The notes below the pieces were generated by a model. It was not told the DNA's origin and searched no databases. It saw only the letters and a program-made list of their open reading frames with translations. A DNA stretch of 64,000 nt from positions 1 to 64,000 of IMG/VR virus record IMGVR_UViG_3300021170_000016. One strand, written 5' to 3'. The stretch comes from a virus. The translations under genes and the position numbers were made by a program. Of this stretch, positions 718 to 22,223 are shown piece by piece (positions within the stretch are counted from its first letter, which is position 1; the number at the start of each line of letters is the position of its first letter).

Positions 718-1935
718 TTACTCGCCCCACGCGCCCAGGAGCTTGTCAAGCCCAGGGGGAGCCCCGGTCGCCGCATCGGCCGTCGCAGGCTTCGTTGTCG
801 CAGGTGCGGCAGCGGGAGTCGCCTTTACCTTGGGCGCTCCAGCCTTCGCGTCTGCGACGGGCTGTGTAGGGGCCGCAGCGGCGCTCCCAGGCAGCACCGG
901 CTCGCCATCGTCATCATCCTCCGCGGCCTTCGCAGCAGCGGCGGCAGCGGCAGCCGCAGCCTCAGCGGCAGCCTTCGCCTCGGCGACCTTCTTGGCTTTC
1001 GCCTCGGCCTTGGCGGCAGCATCCGCAGCGAGCTTGGCGGCGACCTCCTGGGCGACCTTGGCGGCAGCCTCAGCCTCCGTCGTCTTGGGCGGCGTCACGT
1101 CCTTGGCGGCAGCCGCGGCGGCGTTGTCCTCAGGGCCGGACAGCTCGGCCACACGCACGCCGTCGCGCCCGTTAGGCGTCCAGGTGGAGCTGATGAGCTG
1201 CTTGACCTTGTCGCTCTGGATGATCGGAATCAGCTTCTCGATCTGCTCGTCGTTGAGGAACACGTCGCGCTGGAAGAGGAGCTTCGGATACTCCGCGTCC
1301 TTATCGAACGTGAGCTTGGTCACGAGCAACGCGGTGTGATCCACCTGATGCGCGCGAAGGTAGTCGGTGTAGTTCTTGAACGCGAACTTGCAGGCCTCGT
1401 CGTTCGCGGGGTTCTTCCCATCCCACACGCTGGTGATCGGCAGCTTCACGCGCAGCGGCTCGAAGGTGAAGTCGGACGCGGGGATGACGGCGATCATCTG
1501 GTGCTGACCACACGCGACGCCTTCCTTGTTGCGCGTCGAGGGGCGTGAGCCCTTGGCCGACATCGGGCACGCCGCGCACGACGCCGCGCAAGGCTTCTTG
1601 ACGTTCTTCGACGGCGTGACGCTGTCGTCGCTCCAGCAGTCCGGCATCGTCGCCTTGGACGGATCATATGCGCCGGCGTAGTAGGATCGCCCTCGTGTCT
1701 GGGCGGCATCGAGAATGATGACCTTGAGTGACTTCACCGGCTCCAGCTCGCCGTCGGCGTCCCTCTTCTGGATGACGGTCTTCTCGCCGTTGAGAATGAC
1801 GGTGAAGTTCTTGCCTTCGATGGAGAGCGACGGCGTCGTCTCCTTATCCTGGATGTTCTTGTTCTCTTGGAAGAACGTAGCGAACTTCGTAGAGAGCGCC
1901 GGCCGATCGGCGAAGGTAGTCAGCTCCTGACCCAT
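718..1935 (-). CDS. candidate ssDNA-binding protein with Cys cluster and acidic/Ala-rich tail
   Basis: 405 residues. The N-terminal ~260 residues look globular. A cysteine-rich stretch (residues ~100-145: CWSDD, CAASCAACP, CGQHQ) could bind zinc. From ~280 on it is low-complexity Ala/Lys/Glu, with the acidic run EDDDDGEP near residue 340, then a Pro/Ala linker. A zinc-binding core plus a flexible acidic tail, next to helicase, nuclease and polymerase genes, fits a phage single-stranded DNA-binding protein, but I see no signature that proves it. GGAG lies seven bases before the ATG, which overlaps the previous stop (TAATG), indicating coupling. Confidence 0.5.
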   Translation of the reverse strand: MGQELTTFADRPALSTKFATFFQENKNIQDKETTPSLSIEGKNFTVILNGEKTVIQKRDADGELEPVKSLKVIILDAAQTRGRSYYAGAYDPSKATMPDCWSDDSVTPSKNVKKPCAASCAACPMSAKGSRPSTRNKEGVACGQHQMIAVIPASDFTFEPLRVKLPITSVWDGKNPANDEACKFAFKNYTDYLRAHQVDHTALLVTKLTFDKDAEYPKLLFQRDVFLNDEQIEKLIPIIQSDKVKQLISSTWTPNGRDGVRVAELSGPEDNAAAAAAKDVTPPKTTEAEAAAKVAQEVAAKLAADAAAKAEAKAKKVAEAKAAAEAAAAAAAAAAKAAEDDDDGEPVLPGSAAAAPTQPVADAKAGAPKVKATPAAAPATTKPATADAATGAPPGLDKLLGAWGE

Positions 1936-2471
1936 TACTCGTCTCCTTTGGCTGCGTCACGCATCTCTTGCTCGAAGCGTGACGTCTTGTCTGTCGCGGT
2001 TCGCACCCGGACCACATACTTCTTCTCGACGCGGATGCCGGGTGGCAACGATACCGGGTCGTCCTTATGCTCCTCCATATACGCAGCGACCTCTCGGGCC
2101 GTGATGCGCTTGTGGAGAAACTGAAAGGCTTTGTTCTCACTAATCCAATTATAGAACGTCGTCCAGTCCTCCGCAGCCGGCAGGACCTCCAGCTCCCGAT
2201 AGACGGTGCCATGCGCGGACTTGGCGTTCGTAAGACCAGTGGTGGTGAGGAGGTCGCCCATCACGCCTTCGAGCCGCTCCATCTCCGTCTTGAAGACCTT
2301 GTCGTCTTCCGCGGCGGCGGCGGCGCGCTTCGCCCTGGCGCGCTTCACGTAGAGATATCGTTCGGTCAGCTCGTCGAATTTATTCGTTTCCACAGATTGC
2401 TCCTTGAGCCATGTGTCAAAGTCATGTTTAATCCAAATACCTTTAATGTCAAGCAGCCACAGCTCAGCCAT
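1935..2471 (-). CDS. hypothetical replication-cluster protein with C-terminal FEQEMRDA motif
   Basis: 178 residues, hydrophilic and helical in the first two thirds. It ends in a conserved-looking block (YVVRVRT) followed by RFEQEMRDAAKGDE. The last segment is one instance of a short motif found in several small proteins of this arm. It overlaps the helicase gene by 8 bases and the next gene by 3, so it sits inside the replication operon. I cannot assign a function; an accessory to the neighbouring ssDNA-binding candidate or helicase is possible. Confidence 0.7.
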   Translation of the reverse strand: MAELWLLDIKGIWIKHDFDTWLKEQSVETNKFDELTERYLYVKRARAKRAAAAAEDDKVFKTEMERLEGVMGDLLTTTGLTNAKSAHGTVYRELEVLPAAEDWTTFYNWISENKAFQFLHKRITAREVAAYMEEHKDDPVSLPPGIRVEKKYVVRVRTATDKTSRFEQEMRDAAKGDE

Positions 2472-4017
2472 CGGCTACCTTTCGATACAGGTCCATGATG
2501 GCCTGCTGACCAGCCGCGTCGTCATCGAGCACCTTGTAGAGTTCCCACTCCAGCGGGTGCGCGGCGATGCGAGCGATGGTCATCTTGTTCTTCTGGCCTG
2601 CGCGGTTGAAGCGCTCGATCACCTGGGAGTAATCCTCATTGCCGTAGATCGGCGCGTAGTTGATCAGGAGATCGGCCTCGGTGAGGTTGAGGCCGTGGGC
2701 CATGACCTTGGGATGCGCGAGGAGAATGTGGGGGTCGGGCTCGGTCTTGAACGCTGTGAATATCTTCTTGCGGTTGGTCGGTGAGACGTCGCCGTTGACG
2801 ACGCCCACGGTGTAGTCGTCCTTCTTGAGCTTGGCCTCCAGGTCTCGAATGATCCCCTTGAACGGGACGATGATGATGACCTTGGCCTTGGCACTCTCGA
2901 TGATCTCCACAAGCGTGTTGTAGCGCGGCTGGTAGTTGATGGTGAAATACTCGCCGGTCGTCGGGTTCTTGATGCACCCGCAGAGTATCTGGCGAAGCTT
3001 GATGATCTTGTCGGCCGCATTCACAGCCGTGACTTGGTGCGCGGCGATCTCTGTCGCCATCTCGTTTTTCATCTCTTTGAACTTGTGCGCCTGCTCCGTC
3101 GACATCTTCGTCTGGAACTTGATGGTGGTCACAGGCGGTAGCGTGATGCAGTCCTTCTTCTCGAAGCGGATCGCCGGCTGCATCGCCGCGTAGACGATCT
3201 TCATGGCGTTGGGCTTACGCACCCACTTGTATTGGTTGATTGGTATCTCGACCTCGCGCCGCCACGTCCCTTTGAACTGGGAGACCGCGTTGGGGTTGAT
3301 GATCCTGATCTGCGACCACGCGTCGGAGGGGAGCTTGGGGCAGGGGCCGCCCGTCAGCCACCACACGCGCTGATCCTTCCGGATCATGCTTTTGAGCGCC
3401 TTGTAGAGATCGGTGCCGGGCTCGCGGAACTTCGAGCCCTCGTCCACGATGACGAGGTTGATGTCCTTCCGATCGTGGACGCCGTGCCACACCTCCTTCG
3501 AGACGACGCCGTCGTGGTTGAAGATGAAGAAGTCCACGTTGGCGGCCATCGCCTTGGCGCGCTTCGCGGCCGAGCCGTGTGCCTCCACCCAGGTGCGGTG
3601 GTAGACAGTGTCAAATATCTCCTGCTCCCACACCGGCTCCAGCGTGCTTAGGGTGGAGATGATCGCGGCGCGCTGGATGACTCCATCGAGCATGAGCTTG
3701 TCGGCCGCCCACAGCGCCGGCTTGGTCTTCATCGTGCCCGGCTCGCTGAGGTTGAAGCAGCGTGGGTGGAGGCGGAGGAAGTTGAACATCTCCAGCTGGT
3801 GAGCGAACGGCGTGGCCCGGCCGGGGAACTCGTAGTCCATCGGCATCGGTGCTTCGATGCCTAGGTTCCGCAGCACGCGCACGTTGTCGATCGAGAACTT
3901 CACCGCGACGTTGAACTGCGGGTGGTCGATCGTCCTACTCTGCGGGATGCATGCGCGTAGCATGAACGGGTCAACTACGCGCAGCACCAGCGAGTTCGTG
4001 GCGGCGTGAACATACAT
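2464..4017 (-). CDS. superfamily 2 (SNF2-like) DNA helicase
   Basis: 517 residues. Motif I is SEPGTMKT (~91-98), a variant lacking the usual GKT. Motif Ia is IISTLSTLEPVW, motif II VDEGSKFREP (~191-200), motif III LTGGP. The C-terminal RecA-like lobe has IIIVPFKG (motif IV), the LNLTEADLLINY region (V) and QVIERFNRAGQ (VI, ~470). This is the layout of short SNF2/DEAD-type phage helicases, used in replication or recombination. The Met in place of Gly before the catalytic Lys is unusual but the Lys-Thr pair is intact. A VRR-NUC nuclease gene lies immediately upstream. Confidence 0.85.
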   Translation of the reverse strand: MYVHAATNSLVLRVVDPFMLRACIPQSRTIDHPQFNVAVKFSIDNVRVLRNLGIEAPMPMDYEFPGRATPFAHQLEMFNFLRLHPRCFNLSEPGTMKTKPALWAADKLMLDGVIQRAAIISTLSTLEPVWEQEIFDTVYHRTWVEAHGSAAKRAKAMAANVDFFIFNHDGVVSKEVWHGVHDRKDINLVIVDEGSKFREPGTDLYKALKSMIRKDQRVWWLTGGPCPKLPSDAWSQIRIINPNAVSQFKGTWRREVEIPINQYKWVRKPNAMKIVYAAMQPAIRFEKKDCITLPPVTTIKFQTKMSTEQAHKFKEMKNEMATEIAAHQVTAVNAADKIIKLRQILCGCIKNPTTGEYFTINYQPRYNTLVEIIESAKAKVIIIVPFKGIIRDLEAKLKKDDYTVGVVNGDVSPTNRKKIFTAFKTEPDPHILLAHPKVMAHGLNLTEADLLINYAPIYGNEDYSQVIERFNRAGQKNKMTIARIAAHPLEWELYKVLDDDAAGQQAIMDLYRKVADG

Positions 4018-4020
4018 CGT

Positions 4021-4473
4021 TCAGTGCTTCGGCATCGCCGCGGCCATCTTCCCCATCGTCGCGAACGGGGCGAAGGGCTCCATCATCTTGAGATGACACT
4101 GCACGAACTCTTCGCCCTTCGCCATGTCGTAGTCGGCGAGCGTGCCACCCTTCTGAAGCACAGCCTGCACCTCGTCGAACAGCACGAGGAAGCGCTCGAA
4201 GTCTTCCAGGTTGTCGTTGTTGACGACGAAGGCGAGATGCTCCGCCTGATGGATCATCGTGAGGAACGCCTTCTGCATCTCCGTCGGCTTCTCCGCGGCG
4301 GTCTTCTTGAACTCGACCACCATAAAGACGCCGGGCTTGACGGCGTGGAGATCGCTGATCCCGTTCTTGCCGAACTGGTTGGCGGGCGGCATCCAGTGAA
4401 ACCAGCCGTGCTTGTCCAGCAACGCCTTGGCCTTGCGCTTCACGTCCTTCTCGACGAGGTGTGCTTTCGTCAT
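4021..4473 (-). CDS. VRR-NUC domain nuclease
   Basis: 150 residues from the ATG at 4473, chosen because AGGAG lies about 10 bases upstream and the ATG overlaps the previous stop (ATGA). A longer reading from 4503 would run into the neighbour. The restriction-endonuclease-like core is seen as GISDLHAVKPG (catalytic Asp41) followed by VVEFKK (Glu54, Lys56), a PD-(D/E)xK arrangement typical of small phage VRR-NUC proteins. It probably acts on branched or flap DNA with the SF2 helicase encoded next. The C-terminal ~80 residues are helical and unassigned. Confidence 0.8.
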   Translation of the reverse strand: MTKAHLVEKDVKRKAKALLDKHGWFHWMPPANQFGKNGISDLHAVKPGVFMVVEFKKTAAEKPTEMQKAFLTMIHQAEHLAFVVNNDNLEDFERFLVLFDEVQAVLQKGGTLADYDMAKGEEFVQCHLKMMEPFAPFATMGKMAAAMPKH

Positions 4474-4685
4474 AGACTTCCCACTCCTGCTTGGTTTCGG
4501 CACTCGATCGTGCCTTCGAGCCGTTTCACTCTCGCCTCAGCGTCGCGAGCGCGCTGAAGGTATTGGTTGTTGGCGGCGAGCAGCTCATCGATGCGTGCGT
4601 CCTTCTGCGCGATCGTCTGCTGCAGCTCACATATCTTGGTCTCGCGCAGACGCATCGTCGCGTCGACGTCGTAGTCTTCATTCAT
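4470..4685 (-). CDS. small coiled-coil protein
   Basis: 71 residues, strongly helical with heptad-like Leu/Ile/Ala spacing (ELQQTIAQKDARIDELL, then a second helix ARDAEARVKRLE). Its stop overlaps the nuclease start (ATGA) and its start overlaps the upstream gene by 8 bases, so it is a tightly coupled cistron. Function unknown; a dimerising adaptor is plausible from shape only. Confidence 0.6.
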   Translation of the reverse strand: MNEDYDVDATMRLRETKICELQQTIAQKDARIDELLAANNQYLQRARDAEARVKRLEGTIECRNQAGVGSL

Positions 4686-4914
4686 TGGGGTCTCCTAGAT
4701 GCACGCCGCGGTCCTTGGCCCAGCGCTCGAAGACCGCGAGGGCGAAGTCCTTGTCGCTGAGAATCTGACCGTCGGTCGACCGCACGAAGCGGTTGACGAT
4801 GTCGAAGAGCCGAGCGCGCTGGAAGTAGATCGCCTCCAGCTCCGTTTCGTAGTTCCGACGCTTCTCGTTCGTCGGCGAGCGTTGCAGCTCGGCGCGGATT
4901 TCGCCTTCAGTCAT
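4678..4914 (-). CDS. hypothetical protein
   Basis: 78 residues beginning MTEGEIRAEL. The ATG at 4914 is preferred over the upstream GTG at 4935 because AGGA lies eight bases before it. It overlaps the end of the preceding gene by 8 bases. Predicted mostly helical and charged (YETELEAIYFQRARLFDIVNRF). No family recognised. Confidence 0.6.
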   Translation of the reverse strand: MTEGEIRAELQRSPTNEKRRNYETELEAIYFQRARLFDIVNRFVRSTDGQILSDKDFALAVFERWAKDRGVHLGDPNE

Positions 4915-5194
4915 CGCGCTCATCCTGTCTGACACGAGGGGCCTTCACTGGGGGTGGATCGGGCGGCATGTCCTTGCGCCGGGCCACGAGCGCGGCGTAG
5001 GCCAGCCGCACATGGTCGATGCGCCCGCCCGCGATGGGGAACTGACGCACCATCACCGCGAGGTCCGCGTCGTTGGGCGAGTAGGGTAGGAGCATGAACC
5101 CATACTTGCGGAGCTGCCGGAGGAACTCGTCGGGTTCGAGACCGCCGACAGGATACTCGCCGAGGTCAGTGACGAGGTTGTGGAAGTCGCTCAT
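4907..5194 (-). CDS. hypothetical protein
   Basis: 95 residues, mixed alpha/beta, Pro-rich near the C-terminus (PPDPPPVKAPR). It overlaps the preceding small membrane-protein gene by 4 bases (ATGA) and the next gene by 8. It is part of the unbroken string of coupled small cistrons between the RecB-like nuclease and the helicase. No family recognised. Confidence 0.6.
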   Translation of the reverse strand: MSDFHNLVTDLGEYPVGGLEPDEFLRQLRKYGFMLLPYSPNDADLAVMVRQFPIAGGRIDHVRLAYAALVARRKDMPPDPPPVKAPRVRQDERDD

Positions 5195-5313
5195 GGCCGG
5201 TGATCTCCATGGAGTATCTTGTTCATCTGCGCGATGTCGCCGCGGATCGCATCAAGGTCCATTGCGATGATGAAAGTCAAGATGATCATCACAAGGCGGA
5301 ACACGAGCTTCAT
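5191..5313 (-). CDS. 40-residue single-span membrane protein
   Basis: Begins MKLVFRLVMIILTFIIAMDL at 5313, so residues ~3-19 form one transmembrane helix, followed by a short polar tail. The start is set by AAGGAG about eight bases upstream and by overlap with the stop of the nuclease gene (TGATG). A longer open frame from 5457 has no RBS and is out of frame within the nuclease gene. Function unknown. Confidence 0.6.
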   Translation of the reverse strand: MKLVFRLVMIILTFIIAMDLDAIRGDIAQMNKILHGDHRP

Positions 5314-6008
5314 CAGCGCTTCTCCTTCTTCGGCTTCCAGTGCTTGCAGTCGGTGACTGGGCACCAGCCATAGCAGAGACCGCTGGGCTTCGGCGGCCAC
5401 GTGTCGGTGTCGTAGGCGGTCTTCAGGTTGGTGAGAGACGGGATGAACTGCGCCCACAACTGAGGTATCTCCGCACGGCCATAGACGTAGCGCTCGACAG
5501 CCTTCTCATAGTCGCTCTCTTGCGTCCAGTAGAAGAAGGCGTCGACCACATTGATATCGGGATACATCGCGAATGTCCAGAGCGCGTTCTGCACGAGCTG
5601 CCCTGGCTTCGGCTTCCGCTTGCCGGTCTTGTAGTCCACGATGCGCGCACGCTGCGCGAGATACTCGACCTTGGTGTAGTCGATGACGCCGCGCCACCAC
5701 ACCCGGTCGCTGAAGTAGTCGGACACCGGCCTGAGCTGCTTGTCGAGCGCGACCTTCTGCTCGGTGAAGAAGAAGCCATCCCACGCCTCCATGCGCTGCA
5801 TGAACTTCTCGTGGTGGCTCAGCTCCTGCGGCAGCTCGATCCTGGTCCCCTGGCGATCCTCGAACGCCTTGTGGACATAGCGGCCCCACTTCGCTTCCTC
5901 GGAGTCAGCCTCGAACGGAAAGCGCTTGAGATTGCGCACCTCGTTGAACTGCTTGAGGCACTGGTCCGCCTGTTCGAGACCGGTGAAGCTCCAGGGCTTG
6001 GCTTTCAT
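5313..6008 (-). CDS. Cas4/RecB-like PD-(D/E)xK nuclease with a four-Cys Fe-S signature
   Basis: 231 residues. The nuclease core is TEQKV (Glu83), RGVIDY (Asp110) and IVDYKTGK (Asp125, Lys127), followed by a QxxxY-like helix (GQLVQNALWTFAMY). One Cys near the N-terminus (Cys17) and three at the C-terminus (Cys212, Cys216, Cys221) match the split cluster that holds a 4Fe-4S centre in Cas4, AddB and related 5'-3' exonucleases. The expected role is DNA end resection in replication or recombination. Motifs are seen; the cluster is inferred from spacing. There are no cas genes nearby. Confidence 0.85.
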   Translation of the reverse strand: MKAKPWSFTGLEQADQCLKQFNEVRNLKRFPFEADSEEAKWGRYVHKAFEDRQGTRIELPQELSHHEKFMQRMEAWDGFFFTEQKVALDKQLRPVSDYFSDRVWWRGVIDYTKVEYLAQRARIVDYKTGKRKPKPGQLVQNALWTFAMYPDINVVDAFFYWTQESDYEKAVERYVYGRAEIPQLWAQFIPSLTNLKTAYDTDTWPPKPSGLCYGWCPVTDCKHWKPKKEKR

Positions 6009-6804: not shown

Positions 6805-6824
6805 GGTATCTCCTTGTTGGTAAG

Positions 6825-6873: not shown

Positions 6874-6897
6874 TCACTCCGGTAGCGAGCCGGAAGC

Positions 6898-7710: not shown

Positions 7711-7729
7711 TCACTTCTCCTCTATGTTT

Positions 7730-13970: not shown

Positions 13971-14360
13971 TCACGTGCTGACCCCATTGGACACCCCTGC
14001 TGCCCAACCCATGGTGCTTGGAGCAGGTTCCTCCTCAGGCGCGCGGCTGTCGATGAGAGCCATCGCCATCAACGCAGCCTGCTTCTTGCGGTTGCTGAAC
14101 CGCTGCGTGACTGTCCACTCATATACCGGCCACTGGTCATTCGCGCGCGGCAGCCAGCGCACGATGTGGAACATGCGATGACGGAACACAAGCAGCGTCG
14201 TTGCTGTAACTTGTCGCGTCATGTTGTTGCAGAGGTTCTGGAGCGCGTGCGGCTTCCACAGTTTTACGGACTCCCACATGTGAACCTGTCCCTGAGTGCA
14301 GTAGGCGATCGGGATATAGGTCGGCTCGTTTTTCAGGTAGTTCCACTTCGATTTGCTCAT
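13971..14360 (-). CDS. hypothetical protein
   Basis: 129 residues, basic and aromatic (YIPIAYCTQGQVHMWESVKLW), with a C-terminal helix (NRKKQAALMAMALIDSR). It overlaps the preceding gene by 4 bases. No motif recognised. Confidence 0.55.
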   Translation of the reverse strand: MSKSKWNYLKNEPTYIPIAYCTQGQVHMWESVKLWKPHALQNLCNNMTRQVTATTLLVFRHRMFHIVRWLPRANDQWPVYEWTVTQRFSNRKKQAALMAMALIDSRAPEEEPAPSTMGWAAGVSNGVST

Positions 14361-14725
14361 CGCTGTTGCTCCAGCATCTTCTTCGCGTGACCGAGCGCGG
14401 CATTGTAGTCGTCGAACATCGGCAGCGTATCGCGCGTGAATGCTCCTGGCTGGAACACCACGAACGGAGTGCTCGCCTTCTGCATCTCCTGCTCGAACTT
14501 CGTCAGGCTCGGGTCAGGGTTGCGCTTGACGATGGCGATGCCTGCGCCCACGCGGCTGCACAACCAATCGAGCGTGACCGCATCGTCGCCGTTCTCGCCA
14601 GTGACGCGGTCATACTCTGACACACGCCCATTCCTATGGACGAGCGCGAGCCAGTGATATGTTGCTACCTTGCGCATCATACCCTTCATCAGATACTTAA
14701 TGGCGTCGGAGATGTGATCGTTCAT
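14357..14725 (-). CDS. hypothetical protein with FExxMxxA motif
   Basis: 122 residues starting MNDHISDAIKYLMKG; the ATG at 14725 overlaps the stop of the metallopeptidase/VWA gene (ATGA), so a longer frame from 14842 is rejected. It contains LTKFEQEMQKAS mid-protein, one of the shared motifs of this arm. Coupling to the VWA gene hints at a related role. Confidence 0.55.
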   Translation of the reverse strand: MNDHISDAIKYLMKGMMRKVATYHWLALVHRNGRVSEYDRVTGENGDDAVTLDWLCSRVGAGIAIVKRNPDPSLTKFEQEMQKASTPFVVFQPGAFTRDTLPMFDDYNAALGHAKKMLEQQR

Positions 14726-15879
14726 ATGCGGATCGTCATCGCCCAGTCGGGCGCTTTGTGGTTCGTGTTGCTCAACACGATGAGAGGGAACGGCGTCGGG
14801 CTCTCGGGCCATGGCGTGTAGCAGTCCGTCACCAGCACGCACACGATGGGGTCGTAGCGCTCGATGAACTTGAGCGGCTTGCGCATGTCCGTCCCGCCCC
14901 CGCCTGTCGGATGCAGCACCACCTCGTCATGCGGCTCGAAGACTTCTTCGAGATTACACTCATCATCGTCCGCCCAGATCACACGGATGCGATCGGGCTT
15001 GACCACCTCACGGATCGTCTCCAGCTCGTGCCCAGTCTGGGCGAAGATAGGCGAACCGGTCAGCGAGCCGGACGTGTCTCCGATCACGACAAGCTCGCCC
15101 ATCTTCATCGATCGACGCGTGGGCAGGTAGACCTCGAAGCGCCGGTTGCGATGGTTCCAGCTCTCTTCGTCCTCTGCAAACTTGGTCGTGTAGTTGTAGA
15201 GCAGCTCCTGCCACGTCAGCGGCGGGTTCACGATGCCGTCGACAAGCTGGGCCAGCTCACCCTTCATCTGGCCGCACATGCGTGCCGCCGTGGCTGCCTG
15301 GATCACACGCTGGGTGATGCGCCGCTCGACGATCGCCCGCTCGTCGGGGTTCATGTTGGGCTCAAGCAGATCGCCCATCAGGTCTCCGCCTTTGCCGCCC
15401 TTCGCCTTGGTCTTCTGCTGCTTCTTCAGGATGGCCAGCAGCTCGGGGTAAATCTGCTCGGCCGACATGCCGGCGAAGTTGACGCGCTCGCCTTCGAACT
15501 CGTGGAGATACGCCTTATCCCATATCTCGAACTTCGCAGCGTGAAGCAGCAGGTTGATGGCGAAGTCGCACGCGATGTTCCACAGCTCGGCGTCTCGTCC
15601 GCCACGACGCAGCCCATGCTTGAGTGCGATGTGCATCACCTCATGGGCCAGGACGAACAGGCGCACGGCCTTGCTCAGCGACTCCATGAACTTCGGGTTG
15701 TAGAAGATGCGGCGCATATCCGTCGCCGCTGTCGCCATGCCGCCATTCCTTGCAGCCATCACTGCGCACTCGGCCGCGGTCCACTCGACCATCGGCGTCT
15801 CAAGCAGCAGCGTCGCGAAGAACACATGCTTCAGTAGCATCTGCGACTTGACAAGACTCATTGCATCATGCGTTGCCAC
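14722..15879 (-). CDS. putative metallopeptidase with C-terminal VWA-like domain (DUF2201-type)
   Basis: 385 residues, GTG start at 15879 with GGAG seven bases upstream. The N-terminal domain has AHEVMHIALKH (HExxH at 79-83), with a downstream helix (AELWNIACDFAINLLL) typical of DUF2201_N. The C-terminal domain has a MIDAS-like VIGDTSGSL (Asp268, Ser270, Ser272), GGGGTD (Thr330, Asp331) and LVTD (Asp352). Such proteins pair with MoxR AAA+ ATPases, and one is encoded about 1.2 kb upstream on the same strand. The target is unknown; the pair may remodel or proteolyse host proteins. Confidence 0.8.
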   Translation of the reverse strand: MATHDAMSLVKSQMLLKHVFFATLLLETPMVEWTAAECAVMAARNGGMATAATDMRRIFYNPKFMESLSKAVRLFVLAHEVMHIALKHGLRRGGRDAELWNIACDFAINLLLHAAKFEIWDKAYLHEFEGERVNFAGMSAEQIYPELLAILKKQQKTKAKGGKGGDLMGDLLEPNMNPDERAIVERRITQRVIQAATAARMCGQMKGELAQLVDGIVNPPLTWQELLYNYTTKFAEDEESWNHRNRRFEVYLPTRRSMKMGELVVIGDTSGSLTGSPIFAQTGHELETIREVVKPDRIRVIWADDDECNLEEVFEPHDEVVLHPTGGGGTDMRKPLKFIERYDPIVCVLVTDCYTPWPESPTPFPLIVLSNTNHKAPDWAMTIRI

Positions 15880-16066
15880 GTTTCATCTCCTTCGTTAATT
15901 GTAGCTGACGAACTACCTCAGCTTCGGTGAGTGATAGTATATAGGCGATGCGCGATGTGTCCAGCCCAGCGCGCCACAGCGAGCGCACCCTGTCTGACTT
16001 TCGACGCACACCATGTGAACGGCGCGGCGCGCGGCTGATGCGCATGTCCTGAGTAAGCCAGTGCAT
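15866..16066 (-). CDS. small HTH-like protein
   Basis: 66 residues, ATG at 16066 with GGAGG ideally placed. The basic N-terminus is followed by a helix-turn-helix-like stretch (VRSLWRAGLDTSRIAYILS, then LTEAEVVRQL). It overlaps the VWA gene start by 14 bases and the C-terminal half of the gene upstream in another frame. A regulator of the module is possible. Confidence 0.55.
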   Translation of the reverse strand: MHWLTQDMRISRAPRRSHGVRRKSDRVRSLWRAGLDTSRIAYILSLTEAEVVRQLQLTKEMKRGNA

Positions 16067-16247
16067 GTTGTGCCTCCTTCATCCTGCGCTCGAACTTCCA
16101 CTCGTGTGGACAGGTGCATATATCCGGACCACTGTAGTCCCAGTAGGAACAGTCGCGATGGTGCTCTTTCGCAACCTCTGGACTGAAGATCACTGTCCCC
16201 GCGGGATACATTTGCCGAGTCGCACACCATCTTGCGTTAGGCTTCAT
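15918..16247 (-). CDS. hypothetical Cys-rich protein with FExxMxxA motif
   Basis: 109 residues from the ATG at 16247, which overlaps the previous stop (TGATG). N-terminal Cys/His residues (WCATRQMYP, HHRDCSYWDYSGPDICTCPHE) may bind zinc, followed by WKFERRMKEAQ. Its last ~50 codons are shared out of frame with the HTH-like gene starting at 16066, so the real C-terminus may be shorter or one of the pair may be spurious. Confidence 0.5.
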   Translation of the reverse strand: MKPNARWCATRQMYPAGTVIFSPEVAKEHHRDCSYWDYSGPDICTCPHEWKFERRMKEAQHALAYSGHAHQPRAAPFTWCASKVRQGALAVARWAGHIAHRLYTITHRS

Positions 16248-16756
16248 CACGCCACAGCCTTTCGCATGCGCCGCTCGAACTCAGTGAATGGAAGTAGCTG
16301 GTCGGCTAGCTCGTCGCGCATATCTTTGATGGCGTCCTCGTCGTCGCTCTCGACGCCCCATAAGGACGCACGCTCTGAGCGACCGCTCTCGGTTATATAG
16401 TTCACGACGACGCCGACGTATCGCCACTTACTGTCACACCAACCTTGCAAGCGGTCGAAGTCCCACTGAACAGCCGCCTCGATGCATTGTTTCTGCGTCA
16501 GGCCGTGCTCCTTCGCCCACTGTGCCCCTTCAGGATGACCCCAGCCTTCTCGCTTGGCCTTGGCCATCGTCTTCTGCCAGTCGTAGTAGTGGAAATGATT
16601 GCCGTCGCGATGCAGCACACGTTCACCCGGTCGCTTGTTGCTACCATGACGCGAGCTGACGACGCCATATCCACTATCTTCCCACGGCGGTTCGCGGTCG
16701 TCGTCGACGATCTCCATCGTGAAGTCGAAGCCCTCGTATGTGAAGTGCTCAGTCAT
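16247..16756 (-). CDS. conserved phage protein of unknown function
   Basis: 169 residues. Three ATGs in a row; the third (16756) is best placed, six bases after GAGG. The stretch PPWEDSGYGVVSSRHGSNKR followed by PGERVLHRDGNHFHYYDWQ and AKREGWG is a pattern I have seen in many phage hypothetical proteins. It ends in PFTEFERRMRKAVA, the shared motif. Function unknown. Confidence 0.65.
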   Translation of the reverse strand: MTEHFTYEGFDFTMEIVDDDREPPWEDSGYGVVSSRHGSNKRPGERVLHRDGNHFHYYDWQKTMAKAKREGWGHPEGAQWAKEHGLTQKQCIEAAVQWDFDRLQGWCDSKWRYVGVVVNYITESGRSERASLWGVESDDEDAIKDMRDELADQLLPFTEFERRMRKAVA

Positions 16757-17105
16757 CATCATCCTCGTTGGTGATTAGTGCAGCGACGCCTTGAGTCAAT
16801 GATCTTGACTCGGGTATCTCCATCAACGCGTTGACGCCGCGCTGGCGTAGCATGATGGCGATATGTCCGTTGCGGTCCTGGTGAACGCGCACCATCGCGC
16901 GCTCGACGAGCTTCGCCACACACGAACAGCTCTTGCCTTGGTTATCGGTGAACGAAAGCACGCGCGTAGTCGGACGCGGAGGTTTGATCCACTCCGCTCG
17001 CACGTGCCCCATTGAGACCTTCTGCAACGCGAGCGTCTCACCCGGCGAGAGCGGACGATCCGCGCCGAGACACTCGTCGCTCGGACACGTGCGATGGCTG
17101 CACAT
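16749..17105 (-). CDS. hypothetical protein whose coding sequence runs through a palindrome copy
   Basis: 118 residues from MCSHRTCPSDECLG at 17105, just after the MoxR stop. N-terminal Cys/His residues (CSHRTCPSDEC) could bind zinc. Palindrome copy 3 is inside the 3' part and is translated as ESRSLTQ, so the last ~20 residues may be readthrough of a regulatory insertion. It overlaps the next gene by a few bases. Confidence 0.5.
   Translation of the reverse strand: MCSHRTCPSDECLGADRPLSPGETLALQKVSMGHVRAEWIKPPRPTTRVLSFTDNQGKSCSCVAKLVERAMVRVHQDRNGHIAIMLRQRGVNALMEIPESRSLTQGVAALITNEDDDD
16793..16811. repeat. GANTC-GATC-GANTC palindrome, copy 3
   Basis: GAGTCAATGATCTTGACTC. The only copy well inside an apparent coding region; it lies 37 bases upstream of the start at 16756, the same relative place as the intergenic copies. 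Confidence 0.8.
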
Positions 17106-17107
17106 TC

Positions 17108-18175
17108 TCACTGCCAGATCGCCTTGTTCTCCTTCGAGAACTTGATGAAGGCATTGGTCTGGTAGAGCGGGTCGCCGACGCGAGCCGTCGCGAGGTTCCA
17201 CGCCATCACGCGGAACTCAGGGTTCATGCGCGACAGATACGTGTCGTAGGGGTCGGCCGTCTTCGGGTCCATCGAGCCGCTGATGGACAGCGCCATCGCA
17301 TACTGCATGCCGGGCTCGTCCGGGCCGTAGACCTCAGCCTTGGTCGGCTCCTTGAGCACACGTGGCATGAGCTTCGTGACCTTCTCCCAGTGCTCGATGA
17401 AGCCATACAGCTGCATCTGGTTACCAGTGCCCACAGAGCCGGCGATAGCGGCTTCTTTGAGCCACGACGGCATTGTAGTGTCCGCCAGATACATGCCTGC
17501 CCTGACCCACGAGCGGCCCGTCGCGAAGCACTTCTCGGGCTTCTCTGGGTTGAACGTGTGAAGCAGCTGCTTCTGCCACGTGAGGAAGGCGATGACGAGC
17601 GCGGGCACGCCACGCTTCTGCGCATCCATCGACCAGTCCTTGATGTTGGGCTCGGTCTCGGCCCACGTGATGCGGTTGTCGAGCGGTGACGGCATACGGT
17701 TGCCGATGCCCTTGTCGCTGGCGCGGTTCATGGCGCAGCTGATCCGCACGTTGTCCATGAGCACATGCTCGCCGATGCGCCGCGCCTCCATCAGCTGGTA
17801 GCAGATCGCCAGCACCGACTGGTTCGCGTGGTTCAGCTCATCCAAGAACAGGTTGATGATCGGCCCGTTCTCATCGAAGTTGGGGTTGCCCTTGAACGGC
17901 AGCGTCGACGCTGGATACCACGTCGTGCTCTTGTAGCCGTCATGCGTATCGACGCCGGGGAAGCCCCGGAGATCGACGCTGTCATACTGACCCATGAGGA
18001 ACGGCAGGAAGATCGCCCCCGACTCCTCGGTCGCCTGCTTGTTGCCCTCCGTCTTACCGCAGCCTGACGGGCCGACGAAGCCCACCACGTTGTTGAGACG
18101 AAAGCACACGTGCTTAATCATCTCCTTCATCTGCTCGATGCTGATGGTGTGCATCGTGTTCACTGCTACCGACAT
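17108..18175 (-). CDS. MoxR-type AAA+ ATPase
   Basis: 355 residues. Walker A GPSGCGKT (35-42), Walker B NLFLDELNHAN (~108-118), a sensor-1-like CAMNRASD and the NRITW segment typical of MoxR/CobS-like ATPases, where a helix insert lies before Walker B. These ATPases work with VWA proteins as chaperone or remodelling pairs; the VWA-like metallopeptidase is encoded just downstream. The gene has its own leader: hairpin, palindrome copy 4 and CAACGAAGGAG. Substrate unknown. Confidence 0.85.
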   Translation of the reverse strand: MSVAVNTMHTISIEQMKEMIKHVCFRLNNVVGFVGPSGCGKTEGNKQATEESGAIFLPFLMGQYDSVDLRGFPGVDTHDGYKSTTWYPASTLPFKGNPNFDENGPIINLFLDELNHANQSVLAICYQLMEARRIGEHVLMDNVRISCAMNRASDKGIGNRMPSPLDNRITWAETEPNIKDWSMDAQKRGVPALVIAFLTWQKQLLHTFNPEKPEKCFATGRSWVRAGMYLADTTMPSWLKEAAIAGSVGTGNQMQLYGFIEHWEKVTKLMPRVLKEPTKAEVYGPDEPGMQYAMALSISGSMDPKTADPYDTYLSRMNPEFRVMAWNLATARVGDPLYQTNAFIKFSKENKAIWQ

Positions 18176-18197
18176 GCTACTTTCTCCTTCGTTGATT

Positions 18198-18216
18198 GAG
18201 TCAATGATCTTGACTC
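18198..18216. repeat. GANTC-GATC-GANTC palindrome, copy 4
   Basis: GAGTCAATGATCTTGACTC, 22 bases upstream of the MoxR start. The bases between it and the ATG match those after copy 2. Confidence 0.85.
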
Positions 18217-18232
18217 GGTTGAGGACATGATT

Positions 18233-18277
18233 GGACCCTGGCGAGTCGACGCGACCAAACGTTCCCCACCAGGGTCC
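18233..18277. other. hairpin upstream of the MoxR gene
   Basis: GGACCCTGG (18233-18241) pairs perfectly with CCAGGGTCC (18269-18277), with a 27-base loop. It follows the stop of the 288-residue gene and precedes palindrome copy 4. No T-run, so it is a possible processing site or weak terminator. Confidence 0.45.
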
Positions 18278-18304
18278 TTACCTACGCGTCATGCGCAGGT
18301 ATCT

Positions 18305-19171
18305 CTATGCTGCCAGCGGCAGCTCTAATGTCAAGGGGCAGCGCCGGAACGGAAACTGTCCTTTGACGCGTTGTTCTTCGGGCAACTCGTTGATCAGGTC
18401 TTGCCGCGCGTCCTTGACTTTCTCCTCATACTTCTCCCAATCGACCGCAGCACTCCACGCTTGGTGCTCGCCATCGTCTTCATACATCGCGTAGAAGACA
18501 CGCTCGTCGAACTCGCGGCTACTCTGCGCCGGCACCCAGTGAGTTGTATGCAGCCCCGCCGCACGCCGGCCACGTATCTCGAACTCTGTGAGACCGGGCA
18601 GGCTCTTCTCCGCCCTCATCTTGAGTGCAGAGCTAAGCAGCCAGCCAAGCTCGCATGCGTCCCAATTCGTCAGCTCGACGCTCTTGGCTCGCGCCACCGG
18701 GTCGTTGTCGCCGTGTTTATAGCCATAGCGCGCCTCCTCCTCATACAAGAGGGCGAACGTCGCGAAGCCATCGGCTTTGCGACACTTCGCGAGCAGCCGC
18801 TTGGCGACGCTCAGCTTGACCTCGGCCATGTCGCCGCCCACGTGGCGCAGCCCGAGGTCAAACCCGAGGTCCTCACTGGCGAACTTGTCGAACGCGTCAG
18901 TGTGATACGAATGCATCGTCTCGACGAGCTTCGAGTTGTCCGTGCAGTCCCACAGCATACACAAGAGCGTGTCAGCGCTCAGCCTCAGCGCCTCGGGGTG
19001 GTTCATCTCGAACCGGAGATCGTCCTCGTGATACTCAAAGTCGTCCGAGCCAGTGATATACTCGATGTGTGACGAAGCCTCGCTGTCGCCGCATTGCTCG
19101 TAGTTGAGCCCGTTACTAGGTAGTTCGATCGTCAGCCATGTTGCACGAGACTTGCGTTTGCATTTCGACAT
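18305..19171 (-). CDS. hypothetical protein (288 residues)
   Basis: ATG at 19171 with GGAG six bases upstream. Acidic, helical, no recognised domain. It includes LTEFEIRGRRAAG, a variant of the shared FExxMxxA motif, and several Cys scattered without a clear zinc pattern. It is the last gene before the MoxR leader. Its start overlaps the next upstream gene in another frame. Confidence 0.65.
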   Translation of the reverse strand: MSKCKRKSRATWLTIELPSNGLNYEQCGDSEASSHIEYITGSDDFEYHEDDLRFEMNHPEALRLSADTLLCMLWDCTDNSKLVETMHSYHTDAFDKFASEDLGFDLGLRHVGGDMAEVKLSVAKRLLAKCRKADGFATFALLYEEEARYGYKHGDNDPVARAKSVELTNWDACELGWLLSSALKMRAEKSLPGLTEFEIRGRRAAGLHTTHWVPAQSSREFDERVFYAMYEDDGEHQAWSAAVDWEKYEEKVKDARQDLINELPEEQRVKGQFPFRRCPLTLELPLAA

Positions 19172-19379
19172 TGTAGTCTCCTTTCATTTGATCAGCTATC
19201 TTCATGCGCCCCTCGAACTCTGTCTCAAGGCACGTCCACACACCATTTCCGCCAGCCGCCAATGATCGTCCGCCTCTCCTCCAGCGGCAATGGACGCAAG
19301 ACCCGTAGGTCGGACCCCAGTGGTTCGTCAGCTGCGTCTCACGCACACCACAGTCGTGTTCGTAAAGCTTATGCGTCAT
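19116..19379 (-). CDS. small Cys-containing protein with FExxMxxA motif
   Basis: 87 residues from MTHKLYEHDCG at 19379. A Cys/His set (HDCG, CVHCRWRR) suggests a zinc knuckle; TEFEGRMKIADQ is the shared motif. An upstream ATG at 19409 lies inside palindrome copy 5. No strong RBS for either start. The last 56 bases overlap the next gene out of frame. Confidence 0.5.
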   Translation of the reverse strand: MTHKLYEHDCGVRETQLTNHWGPTYGSCVHCRWRRGGRSLAAGGNGVWTCLETEFEGRMKIADQMKGDYNVEMQTQVSCNMADDRTT

Positions 19380-19396
19380 CGGCGTGTAGAGTATCT

Positions 19397-19415
19397 GAGT
19401 CAAGATCATTGACTC
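19397..19415. repeat. GANTC-GATC-GANTC palindrome, copy 5
   Basis: GAGTCAAGATCATTGACTC; overlaps the stop codon of the gene ending at 19406 and precedes the start at 19379 by 17 bases. Confidence 0.85.
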
Positions 19416-19768
19416 ACTGTCGGCTTACGACGCGCACGCCGCAGCTTCTGCACCCACTTCTCCACGTCGTAGTCAGTCGCGCCGTCCACGCCAGGATGTG
19501 CCACCCGATACATGGCGTGATGGAAGCGCGACGCGTCGCCGTGGTCGCCGAACATGGGCGCGTTGACGCTGATACTCTGCGCCTCGAACTCGGCACACAT
19601 GGTGCGCACCTGCTGCGGCAGCTCGAACAGCTCGGCCTCCGCATCGCACGTGCCATCCATCACACGGATCGACGCCTTGGTGAGATAGGCGTCGAGCTTC
19701 TTGACGGCGAGCATCATCTTCAGGATCGGATAGACCGATCGCACCTTGCGCTCCTTGTCGTCCATCAC
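19406..19768 (-). CDS. hypothetical protein
   Basis: 120 residues, helical (VYPILKMMLAVKKLDAYLTK), acidic centre and basic C-terminus (VQKLRRARRKP). The stop is formed within palindrome copy 5. It overlaps the upstream gene by 4 bases. No family recognised. Confidence 0.6.
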   Translation of the reverse strand: MMDDKERKVRSVYPILKMMLAVKKLDAYLTKASIRVMDGTCDAEAELFELPQQVRTMCAEFEAQSISVNAPMFGDHGDASRFHHAMYRVAHPGVDGATDYDVEKWVQKLRRARRKPTVSQ

Positions 19769-19992
19769 TTGCCCTCCGTGAACGCCTTGACCGCGGCGTG
19801 GTCCTGCATTGTCGCCAAAGGCGGGCGATCCCTCCGACGCACTTCAACAACAAACAGCTTGCTCTTGAAGTTCGGGTTGTCTATGCGGAATAACGTGACG
19901 AACTCCGCAATCAGTTCGTCTTCCACAGTTGGAACAGACGCGAGCACACCAGCTATAGCCGCATAGTGGCGTGCATTAAACATAGCCATCAC
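19765..19992 (-). CDS. conserved small phage/bacterial protein
   Basis: 75 residues. The pattern FNARHYAAIAGVL, then LIAEFVTLFRIDNPNFKSKLF matches a common small protein of phages and prophages in which the DNP.F...F segment is conserved. Function unknown. Overlaps neighbours by 4 bases. Confidence 0.6.
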   Translation of the reverse strand: MMAMFNARHYAAIAGVLASVPTVEDELIAEFVTLFRIDNPNFKSKLFVVEVRRRDRPPLATMQDHAAVKAFTEGK

Positions 19993-20216
19993 ACATCTCC
20001 CAGTTCATCGAGCGGATCGTGGTTCCAATCCGCAATTCGCTCTTCGTTGTCACGCATCTGACGCTGCGCTCGCGCATCGATAGCCCTCACGACCTTGGGC
20101 CACGGAGTGGTAGCATCGACGCGCTCCATGTCGCGCGCCGCCTGCGCCTGCTGCTCCTTCACCTGACGCTTGCGCGAGCGCTCGCCCGCTGCGTCGAGCC
20201 ACATTGATCTACCCAT
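19989..20216 (-). CDS. small charged helical protein
   Basis: 75 residues, ATG at 20216 with AAGGAGG nine bases upstream. Basic helices rich in Arg/Gln (ERSRKRQVKEQQAQAARDM) ending in an acidic tail. No family recognised. Confidence 0.6.
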   Translation of the reverse strand: MGRSMWLDAAGERSRKRQVKEQQAQAARDMERVDATTPWPKVVRAIDARAQRQMRDNEERIADWNHDPLDELGDV

Positions 20217-20304
20217 TGCAGATGTCCTCCTTCACGCCACTGATCGTCGCTACCTTAGCCGCGGCCTCGCGCATCTCCGCCTCGAAGCGCTGAGGGATCG
20301 GCAC
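20209..20304 (-). pseudogene. downstream-frame segment, probable C-terminus of the 20557 gene
   Basis: In the frame offset from the 20557 gene, codons from GTG at 20304 read PIPQRFEAEMREAAAKV and onward to a TAG at 20209. This is a clean instance of the FExxMxxA motif, ending by overlapping the next ATG as true gene ends here do. The frame is closed upstream by a TGA and has no RBS, so it is best explained as the real C-terminus of the upstream gene reached by frameshift or indel. Confidence 0.5.
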
Positions 20305-20557
20305 GTTGCGCAACGCGCATCGCGATCACTTCGCCGTTGAGCCGCGCGATGTCAGCAACCAGCTCGCTACGCGGCGCGCATCCTCGCCGAAACGCCCCGT
20401 CATAGAACGACTCGTGAATGGACTTAGGCTCGCCCCAGCTCGCGAGCGCCTCGTCAAGGGCTGTGTTGCCCCGCAAGCGGTGTTGGTGATAGCCCTCCTC
20501 GCGCGCCAAGATGCGCCACACAGGCTCGCCTGGGAACCGCTTCCAGAAGGGCTTCAT
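20255..20557 (-). CDS. hypothetical protein, probably frameshifted near the C-terminus
   Basis: 100 residues. Residues 1-81 (to LNGEVIAMR) look like ordinary protein; the last ~20 are Arg/Gly-rich and resemble shadow sequence (ALRGGDARGRG). The natural continuation, RFEAEMREAAAKV, lies in another frame (20209-20304). I see no classical slippery heptamer. It could be a sequencing indel, a decayed gene or programmed frameshift. Confidence 0.5.
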   Translation of the reverse strand: MKPFWKRFPGEPVWRILAREEGYHQHRLRGNTALDEALASWGEPKSIHESFYDGAFRRGCAPRSELVADIARLNGEVIAMRVAQRADPSALRGGDARGRG

Positions 20558-20766
20558 GATAGCCTCCGTGTGCCGAACTCGCGGATGACGACGCCATAGA
20601 ACGAGCGAACCGCGTCGCCCAGCTGCTGGCCTTCGGCGCGATGGGCGCGAGCCGCTTCGAGCCTGTCTTCGAGCGTCTCGAACTCGCTCTGCGATGGCGG
20701 CGTAGGCGGGATCACCTTGCGCGTGCCGAAGTGTGTGAGATAGGGACGACGTTCACATGTCAACAT
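20554..20766 (-). CDS. hypothetical protein
   Basis: 70 residues from MLTCERRPYLTHFG at 20766, preceded by GGAGG. The middle has a charged helix (EFETLEDRLEAARAHR) that may be a remote relative of the FExxMxxA motif. It is the first gene after palindrome copy 6 and the 20.9 kb promoter. Confidence 0.6.
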   Translation of the reverse strand: MLTCERRPYLTHFGTRKVIPPTPPSQSEFETLEDRLEAARAHRAEGQQLGDAVRSFYGVVIREFGTRRLS

Positions 20767-20804
20767 GTTGGCCTCCGTGATTGTGGTGGAGCGATCGGCT
20801 GGCT

Positions 20805-20823
20805 GAGTCAATGATCTTGACTC
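20805..20823. repeat. GANTC-GATC-GANTC palindrome, copy 6
   Basis: GAGTCAATGATCTTGACTC, about 77 bases downstream of the -10 at 20900-20905 and upstream of the gene starting at 20766; it lies in the 5' leader. Confidence 0.85.
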
Positions 20824-20829
20824 GCCAGC

Positions 20830-20856
20830 CTAGCCTCGTTTCCGAGGCGCGTTCAT
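20830..20856 (-). other. 8-codon leader ORF containing a GAAA-tetraloop hairpin
   Basis: ATG at 20856 with GGAGG upstream encodes MNAPRKRG then TAG. Within it GCCTCG-GAAA-CGAGGC (minus strand, 20833-20848) forms a six-pair stem with a GNRA loop. It lies between the promoter at 20.9 kb and palindrome copy 6, so it may be a translated leader controlling the genes downstream. Confidence 0.45.
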
Positions 20857-20899
20857 GATCGCCTCCTGTTGTTTGCAACAATACGCATTCAACAACCAG

Positions 20900-20928
20900 A
20901 TAGTAGCATACAATTAACTATATGTCAA
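20900..20928 (-). promoter_or_regulatory. sigma70-type promoter (leftward)
   Basis: Minus strand TTGACA (20923-20928), 17-base spacer, TACTAT (20900-20905). Its surroundings (GCTTGACATA ... ATGCTA..AT) match the promoter at 24.76-24.79 kb. It overlaps the 3' end of the gene ending at 20914 and should drive the genes from 20766 leftward. Confidence 0.75.
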
Positions 20929-21249
20929 GCCCGCTGCTTTGTGGAGCCACTGCATATTCTCATCGAGCGCGCTTGGATTGTCGCCGCGGCGCTCAAACAT
21001 ATAACACATGGCCGCAGCCTCGAAGCTCGTGAAGCGCATGTCTGGCTTGCCTTCCACCAGCACGTAATGAACACCCTTGCGGTTGCGCACCAGCCGCACA
21101 CGCGCGATATATGTAGCAAGCACGCGATCCAACGGTCCCCAACTCGTCAGCTCTTCTATCTTGCTCTCGTTGCCGTCGTGCAGCTCGATGGCCTGCCACG
21201 AGTCGCTGATCAGCCCAAGGCTCGCTGGCGTCACGTCTGCATACCTCAT
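20914..21249 (-). CDS. hypothetical protein
   Basis: 111 residues from MRYADVTPASLG at 21249 (GGAG upstream; ATGA overlap with the previous stop). Mixed alpha/beta with a basic strand (YIARVRLVRNRKGVHYVLVE). The 3' end overlaps the 20.9 kb promoter. No family recognised. Confidence 0.6.
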   Translation of the reverse strand: MRYADVTPASLGLISDSWQAIELHDGNESKIEELTSWGPLDRVLATYIARVRLVRNRKGVHYVLVEGKPDMRFTSFEAAAMCYMFERRGDNPSALDENMQWLHKAAGLTYS

Positions 21250-21581
21250 CGGTTCATCTCCATTGTGGCCACCATGATAGCAACGTCTATGTCTGCGTAG
21301 CCTCGTCTCAGCGCGCGCTCTGCGAGACTCCGGTCCTGCAACCATGCTCGGACGCTGACCGAGCGCTTGGGTGGATAGATGCAATATAGTCCACCACCAT
21401 CGCGAAGGATCAGCCACGTCTGATAAGCTGCGAGCGTGTTGAGCGTGTGCCACGTCTCGCCGATCGAGACATAGCGCCCTTCGCGCGTCACCTGCCCGAT
21501 GAGTTGAAACACCTCAGCCGCCTCGGGCAGCACGTGCTTGCTCGTCAGCCTGCGCAAGTGCTCCGTTGGTTCGCCTGCCAT
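21246..21581 (-). CDS. hypothetical protein
   Basis: 111 residues from MAGEPTEHLRRL at 21581, six bases after AGGAGG; an ATG one codon earlier is possible. Mixed alpha/beta (RYVSIGETWHTLNTLAAYQ, LILRDGGGLYCIYPPKR). Function unknown. Confidence 0.6.
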   Translation of the reverse strand: MAGEPTEHLRRLTSKHVLPEAAEVFQLIGQVTREGRYVSIGETWHTLNTLAAYQTWLILRDGGGLYCIYPPKRSVSVRAWLQDRSLAERALRRGYADIDVAIMVATMEMNR

Positions 21582-21922
21582 CATTCGCCTCCTCTCAAGA
21601 ACAGAGCCAGCCGCCTGCGCGCTTCGAGCTTGCTCAGCGCCTCCTGGCCCTGCGCACGCGCGAGACTCTCCTCGCGATGTATAGCCGTGCCGCGCAGCTT
21701 GGGGTCATACTTGGTGAGGTATGCTCGCCTCTCTTCACTGATTTGAACCGGTCGCAGTATGTCGCGCTCGCTTCGATCGCCCGACGCGATGCGCTTGCGA
21801 ATCGTCTGATACGACAAGTCCTTCGCTCTACCAAAACGGTGATAGATTTCGATCGCCGTCATTTGATTACCATAGAACTCAATGGCTGGCACAACTCGAT
21901 CGGTCTTACGCTTGCGGCCCAT
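21581..21922 (-). CDS. HTH-like DNA-binding protein
   Basis: 113 residues, very basic. N-terminal RKRKTDRVVPAIEFYGNQMT followed by AIEIYHRFGRAKDLSYQTIR and KRIASGD reads as a helix-turn-helix of the kind found in small phage regulators and HNH-associated proteins. It could regulate this arm. It overlaps the upstream gene by 17 bases. Confidence 0.55.
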   Translation of the reverse strand: MGRKRKTDRVVPAIEFYGNQMTAIEIYHRFGRAKDLSYQTIRKRIASGDRSERDILRPVQISEERRAYLTKYDPKLRGTAIHREESLARAQGQEALSKLEARRRLALFLRGGE

Positions 21923-22223
21923 TGTCCTCTCCTTTGACCCAGAACGGCCAGCGATAGCCGTCTATATAGTTATGCTCGCCGTTGTATCGTCCGCTCGTCT
22001 CCATCATCTTCGCCTCGAACTCCGTGACGCGCATTCCCCCAACATCCGATCCGCAGCCTGGGCATCTATTGTGCGACAAGCTACCAGCCGGACTCTCCAC
22101 CATGACGATATCGCACGGCTCGCAGCGCATCACGTAGCTTGCCCAAGGTTGACTCTCCAGATGCTTGCGCAATCGCTCCGCGCGGGGCTTGGTCCATGGA
22201 TCGAGATACTCCTCACCGCTCAT
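21906..22223 (-). CDS. zinc-ribbon-like protein with FExxMxxA motif
   Basis: 105 residues. CEPC (residues ~34-37) and CPGC (~54-57) form a four-Cys zinc ribbon; VTEFEAKMMETSGRYNG is the shared motif, followed by a Trp-rich tail. Overlaps the upstream gene by 4 bases. Function unknown. Confidence 0.6.
   Translation of the reverse strand: MSGEEYLDPWTKPRAERLRKHLESQPWASYVMRCEPCDIVMVESPAGSLSHNRCPGCGSDVGGMRVTEFEAKMMETSGRYNGEHNYIDGYRWPFWVKGEDNGPQA

What the first reader, a model, noticed from the sequence alone, without database searches (positions are those of the whole stretch)
1935..22223. Shared FExxMxxA peptide motif in about eight unrelated small early proteins
RFEQEMRDAA (2471 gene), KFEQEMQKAS (14725), KFERRMKEAQ (16247), EFERRMRKAV (16756), EFEIRGRRAA (19171), EFEGRMKIAD (19379), EFEAKMMETS (22223) and RFEAEMREAA (20304) sit in proteins with no other similarity, often preceded by Thr/Ser. 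A recurring short helical motif implies a common partner, such as a host protein or the AAA+ ATPase/VWA module, or a degron/adaptor tag.
Basis: seen in the sequence. Interest (0 to 1): 0.8.

Follow-up and report, generated by a model that had tools for sequence, protein, structure and literature searches.

The report
Shared short peptide in phage proteins
One uncultured bacterial virus carries the same ten-residue peptide, roughly Glu-Phe-Glu-x-Arg-Met-Arg-x-Ala after a Thr, in about eight otherwise unrelated small proteins; the resemblance is greater than chance gives, related viruses lack it, and it may be a common docking handle whose partner is still unknown.

Summary
All eight peptides are present, on the minus strand, and the motif is essentially the only similarity between their proteins. 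A recurrence scan of the early proteins ranks it first, 148 against at most 147 in 341 shuffles. Flanking residues, not used to select the six strict FExxMxxA sites, agree far beyond random or helix-like windows (0/1500 each). Corrections: one site lacks Met (18586), one is reached only by a +1 shift (20289), two host ORFs are weakly coding.

Synonymous codons vary about as codon usage predicts (0.66 against 0.57), so the likeness is at peptide level, not DNA level. Seven sites cluster at 14.5-22.0 kb around moxR/VWA genes. Two motifs sit on C-terminal tails that homologues lack or do not share. Thirteen related records carry no such set, though seven have the VWA gene. No PDB, PHROG, Pfam or literature match explains it.

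Best reading: a lineage-specific docking motif with unknown partner. The named partners and the degron idea are not supported. A control Rhizobium phage shows a much stronger shared C-terminal tag.

The parts
1950..1979 (-). motif copy 1, RFEQEMRDAA, in the C-terminal tail of the 1935-2471 protein
   Evidence: outside the phrog_13900 match (residues 32-158); seven homologues end soon after the region aligned to VRVR or carry unrelated tails
1935..2471 (-). host gene of copy 1, 178 aa, phrog_13900 / weak DUF7307 (Pam3 gp33-like)
14471..14500 (-). motif copy 2, KFEQEMQKAS
14357..14725 (-). host gene of copy 2, 122 aa, no known family, directly downstream of the VWA gene
16068..16097 (-). motif copy 3, KFERRMKEAQ
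15918..16250 (-). host ORF of copy 3, 110 aa, Cys-rich before the motif; coding evidence weak
   Evidence: -0.14 per codon, still the best of the three minus-strand frames
16253..16282 (-). motif copy 4, EFERRMRKAV, one residue before the stop
   Evidence: outside the phrog_11104 match (10-156); not shared by the 45%-identical homologue in L034
16247..16759 (-). host gene of copy 4, 170 aa, phrog_11104
   Evidence: model pLDDT 82, motif at the end of helix 142-170
18557..18586 (-). motif copy 5, EFEIRGRRAA, degenerate (Gly for Met), not near an end of the protein
18305..19171 (-). host gene of copy 5, 288 aa, no known family
19191..19220 (-). motif copy 6, EFEGRMKIAD
19116..19409 (-). host ORF of copy 6, 97 aa, Cys-containing; overlaps the next gene by 56 bases; weak coding evidence
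20260..20289 (-). motif copy 7, RFEAEMREAA, in the +1 frame relative to ORF 20255-20557
   Evidence: coding signal moves from one frame to the other near 20300-20330
20209..20557 (-). probable gene of copy 7, read from 20557 with a +1 shift (or assembly indel) into the frame ending at 20209
   Evidence: the motif frame's stop overlaps the ATG of the next gene at 20216
21993..22022 (-). motif copy 8, EFEAKMMETS (Thr for Ala)
21906..22223 (-). host ORF of copy 8, 105 aa, CxxC...CxxC segment before the motif
17108..18175 (-). moxR-like AAA+ gene inside the cluster; candidate partner only
   Evidence: P-loop GPSGCGKT read directly; partial distant matches in three relatives
14722..15879 (-). DUF2201 metallopeptidase-like/VWA gene inside the cluster; candidate partner only
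   Evidence: PF13203 1e-40, PF09967 1e-13

Best explanation
A lineage-specific short linear motif, [TS]-[EKR]-F-E-x-[REK]-M-[RK]-x-A, has been gained by about eight small early proteins of this phage, mostly in their C-terminal parts. It probably forms a short amphipathic helix with Phe, Met and Ala on one face and charges on the other, and docks these proteins on one common partner. Shown: presence, excess over chance, peptide-level rather than DNA-level likeness, location outside the conserved domain in the two proteins that have homologues, and absence of such a set from relatives. Inferred: the helix in the free state, selection as the cause, and a single partner. The partner's identity (phage MoxR/VWA, a host protein) is unknown.
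For: Six-frame pattern 6 against 0 for the control, all on one strand. Top of the recurrence scan, 0/341 shuffles. Flanks not used in selection agree, 0/1500. The Ala codon is GCA, GCG, GCT or GCC and the Thr codon ACG, ACT or ACA; synonymous identity 0.66 against 0.57 expected. The motif is the main similarity among these proteins. It lies outside phrog_13900 and phrog_11104; homologues end before it or have different tails. Helix at the motif in both models. Seven of eight sites lie in 32% of the early coding sequence (P = 0.002).
Against: The bare FE..M..A core alone is no better than the best chance motif. The margin over shuffles is thin (148 against 147), and the scan that picked this window adds outer multiplicity. 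No second genome shows the motif conserved in the same proteins, so selection is not demonstrated. Several host ORFs are weakly supported. The 1935 model is poor (pLDDT 45), and the motif profile's weak PDB matches are beta-glucanases (E 0.78), where to my knowledge that stretch is a beta strand, so the sequence does not force a helix.
Confidence: 0.45

Rival explanations
1. Relic of segment shuffling: short C-terminal pieces were copied between neighbouring small genes long ago and diverged, with no common function now.
For: Copies cluster in 8 kb of small genes; copies 1 and 7 are 8/10 identical; the 16247 and 18305 proteins show weak similarity extending upstream of the motif.
Against: No DNA similarity beyond codon usage; only the ten-residue core survives, with F and E invariant in 8/8, which neutral decay would not be expected to keep.
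Confidence: 0.2
2. Chance convergence: an ordinary capped amphipathic helix start (T-x-x-E capping box, hydrophobic residues at i, i+4 and i+7) that happens to recur.
For: The same string occurs in tape-measure and other large proteins of unrelated phages; the bare core is at the noise level of an exhaustive motif search.
Against: Flanking positions agree beyond 191 helix-like control windows (0/1500); control and relative proteomes contain almost none.
Confidence: 0.18
3. Degron or adaptor-recognition tag that times turnover of early proteins by a host AAA+ protease.
For: Most copies lie in the C-terminal 60 residues of small proteins.
Against: Distance to the C-terminus varies from about 10 to about 90 residues, whereas ssrA-type tags are terminal (general knowledge); no known degron resembles it.
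Confidence: 0.1
4. Nucleic-acid element (translation signal, regulator site or recombination boundary) read as a peptide.
For: TTCGAGNNNNNNATG is 13-fold over expectation; in relative G009 a recurring C-terminal GVQENGN is such an element (synonymous identity 0.93 against 0.50, Shine-Dalgarno plus ATG).
Against: In the window synonymous positions vary freely, and the distance from the motif to the next start codon ranges from about 32 to 411 bases (coordinates).
Confidence: 0.05

Closest known systems
Short linear motifs (helical docking peptides) in general
   Same: About ten residues, few fixed positions, scattered over unrelated proteins, often in tails
   Different: No described motif class with this pattern was found in the searches made; here it is confined to one phage genome
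C-terminal YDPxQxGDTEEDI-like tag of Rhizobium phages RHph_N3_19 and RHph_I3_11 (found here as a control)
   Same: One phage lineage, many small proteins, peptide-level likeness (synonymous identity 0.45 against 0.48)
   Different: Strictly C-terminal, 17 copies, much stronger; no sequence resemblance to the window motif
N-terminal segment of phage tape-measure-like proteins (LEARVTEFERRMRQAE)
   Same: Nearly the same decapeptide
   Different: Single copy near the start of a long protein; the carriers here are small and unrelated to it
Repeated translation-start element read as a C-terminal peptide (G009, GVQENGN)
   Same: Recurring peptide at gene ends in a related phage
   Different: Conserved at DNA level and tied to the next gene's Shine-Dalgarno and ATG; the window motif is neither

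Membership tests
Short linear motif under selection | Recurs above chance in proteins that share nothing else | tested here: met
Short linear motif under selection | Likeness is at peptide, not DNA, level | tested here: met
   0.66 observed against 0.57 expected; convergence would look the same, so this excludes only a DNA element or recent copying
Short linear motif under selection | Conserved in orthologues of the carriers | tested here: inconclusive
   available homologues (about 27-45% identity) lack it; none is close enough to test a recent gain
Short linear motif under selection | Binds a defined partner | not testable with these tools
   needs pull-down or complex prediction
Terminal degron (ssrA type) | Located at a fixed protein end | tested here: not met
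   about 10 to about 90 residues from the C-terminus
DNA-level translation-start element | Synonymous sites conserved and fixed distance to a start codon | tested here: not met
   and gene coordinates
MoxR/VWA-dependent adaptor | Motif accompanies the module in related phages | tested here: not met
   VWA homologues in seven relatives without the motif

The most novel reading that the evidence does not exclude
The motif is a phage-evolved docking tag by which a whole set of unrelated small early proteins is recruited to one hub, possibly the phage's own MoxR/VWA machine. Together with the C-terminal GDTEEDI tag of Rhizobium phages it would exemplify a general strategy in which a phage lineage equips its small host-takeover proteins with a common private peptide.
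Probability: 0.2. Interest if true: 0.8.

Novelty: new variant of a known kind. Interest (0 to 1): 0.52.

Why it matters
Most small early phage proteins have no assigned function. A shared private peptide ties eight of them to one question that a single pull-down could answer, and the synonymous-site test used here separates peptide tags from DNA-level repeats, so the same search can be run across phage genomes.

Tried and rejected
Family searches with PHROGs and Pfam gave no family for the motif. Single-protein scans of viral contigs with the VWA, 16247, polymerase and portal proteins found no relatives; a portal alignment with Pseudomonas phage Rollin found 47. tblastn of the small proteins against phages gave only noise; a Mycobacterium phage Farewell hit to the 21906 protein resembles its Cys-rich segment and the following helix but has E = 10. 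Pattern scans of viral contigs and of bacterial genomes (none) found no second cluster. A PDB profile search gave weak chance matches. Foldseek of the 16247 model found only uncharacterised phage homologues. Literature searches found no description. A translation-coupling explanation was considered because of G009 and rejected on synonymous sites and spacing.

Full report
What was checked. The window lies in a 66,319-base virus record. Its portal protein is related to HMO-2011-like portals, with Pseudomonas phage Rollin nearest at 38% identity. Non-structural genes occupy the minus strand below 25 kb, and structural genes the plus strand above it.

The peptides are real. A six-frame scan found all eight on the minus strand, and strict TTYGARNNNNNNATGNNNNNNGCN matches six times, always minus, with no match to the reversed control. 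An all-against-all comparison of the carrier proteins aligns many pairs at the motif and gives only trivial matches elsewhere; the one extension is a weak one between the 16247 and 18305 proteins. Three details differ from the description: 18586 has Gly for Met, 22022 has Thr for Ala, and 20289 is not in the 100-residue ORF but in the +1 frame. There the coding signal switches frame near 20300-20330 and the stop overlaps the next ATG, so a frameshifted or mis-assembled gene is likely. ORFs 15918-16250 and 19116-19409 are weakly coding, though the motif frame is the best of the three.

Is it more than chance? The bare core is not enough: among all 4-residue gapped motifs FE..M..A scores 6.7, no better than the best chance motif in shuffles or in control phages. 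Two further tests favour a real relation. First, in an 11-mer recurrence scan of the early proteins the motif ranks first, 148 against a maximum of 147 in 341 shuffles (mean 127.8, sd 4.2), using only genes from an unsupervised caller; ten control sets from nine other phages gave 127-141, except one discussed below. Some relatives exceed this score, through paralogous N-termini, a translation-start element or Pro/Ala-rich stretches, so the score alone does not say what kind of recurrence it is. Second, flanking residues were not used to pick the six strict sites, yet their leave-one-out agreement is 4.33 bits against a mean of -5.7 (sd 2.0) for samples of 191 helix-like windows, never reached in 1500 draws; for all eight it is 5.35. 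The consensus is therefore [TS]-[EKR]-F-E-x-[REK]-M-[RK]-x-A.

What kind of similarity? Synonymous codons agree about as codon usage predicts (0.66 against 0.57 over 124 comparisons), which argues against recent copying and a DNA-level element, but does not by itself separate selection from convergence. As a contrast, relative G009 has five small proteins ending in GVQENGN or a near variant whose synonymous identity is 0.93 against 0.50; that looks like a Shine-Dalgarno and start codon read as peptide.

Where does it sit? In the two carriers with homologues it lies outside the conserved domain. Homologues of the 1935 protein in seven related contigs end soon after the region aligned to VRVR or carry different tails; an eighth, in G010, was not resolved because the script picked another frame. 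The 45%-identical homologue of the 16247 protein has an unrelated tail, as has Rollin's. The motif therefore appears to have been gained in this lineage. Structure models place it in a helix: the end of helix 142-170 at moderate confidence and a separate helix 165-174 at low confidence. Seven of eight copies fall in 32% of the early coding sequence around the moxR and VWA genes (P = 0.002, region chosen after the fact).

Is it found elsewhere? Thirteen related records gave two pattern hits, and the non-structural regions fetched from seven of them one FExxMxx[AST] match. VWA homologues are present in those seven, so the module does not need the motif. In 2.9 million viral contigs T[EK]FExxMxxA with TTCGAG codons occurs in 35, once each, several in tape-measure-like proteins; the mirror peptide occurs in 90. 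Records very near the window may be left out of these scans.

Mechanism. The best-supported reading is a lineage-specific short linear motif forming a small amphipathic helix that docks several small proteins on one partner. The peptide-level relation is shown; selection, helix and partner are inferred. Rivals are a non-functional relic of segment shuffling, chance use of common helix grammar, a degron, and a nucleic-acid element; the evidence for each is in the Rival explanations section.

Comparison. A control phage, Rhizobium RHph_N3_19, has 17 small proteins ending in a YDPxQxGDTEEDI-like sequence, with saturated synonymous sites (0.45 against 0.48, 916 comparisons), and its relative RHph_I3_11 has 12 in 15 kb. 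That is a clearer case of the same idea and shows that phage lineages do carry private shared peptides.

Noticed in passing
L026 (MN988527) 6382-33303; L230 (MN988510 9500-24500) 642-13325: 17 small proteins of Rhizobium phage RHph_N3_19 (12 in 15 kb of RHph_I3_11) end in a sequence like YDPxQxGDTEEDI, alike as peptide with saturated synonymous sites, interleaved with amidoligase, ATP-grasp, glutamine-amidotransferase and peptidase C26 genes: a candidate C-terminal protein tag or conjugation signal.
   Followed up: partly
L220 178-2724 (contig IMGVR_UViG_3300037471_000673): Five small proteins end in GVQENGN or a near variant; the DNA GGCGTGCAGGAGAACGGCAATG is conserved at synonymous sites and looks like a repeated Shine-Dalgarno plus start-codon cassette.
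   Followed up: partly
L215 5809-14884 (contig IMGVR_UViG_3300025941_000026): About ten small proteins begin with M[NT]REQMIAWLTLEGW or similar and then differ; probably a paralogous family with a conserved N-terminal segment.
   Followed up: partly
L216 4574-6156 (contig IMGVR_UViG_2703719194_000002): Several small proteins share an N-terminal A-x-L-x-LLG[WF] segment.
   Followed up: no
window 20209-20557: Coding signal shifts by +1 near 20300-20330: programmed frameshift, assembly indel or two overlapping genes.
   Followed up: partly
window 14722-15879 and 17108-18175: DUF2201 metallopeptidase/VWA gene and moxR-like AAA+ gene; VWA homologues occur in seven relatives and in 467 phage records.
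   Followed up: partly
window 22976-23596 and 24047-24679: Two paralogous proteins sharing A[VI]A[ST]WSx[VI]RLLAGAP.
   Followed up: no
record positions 66220-66319 against the first 5000 bases: The last 100 bases of the record recur near its start, suggesting a circular or terminally redundant genome.
   Followed up: no
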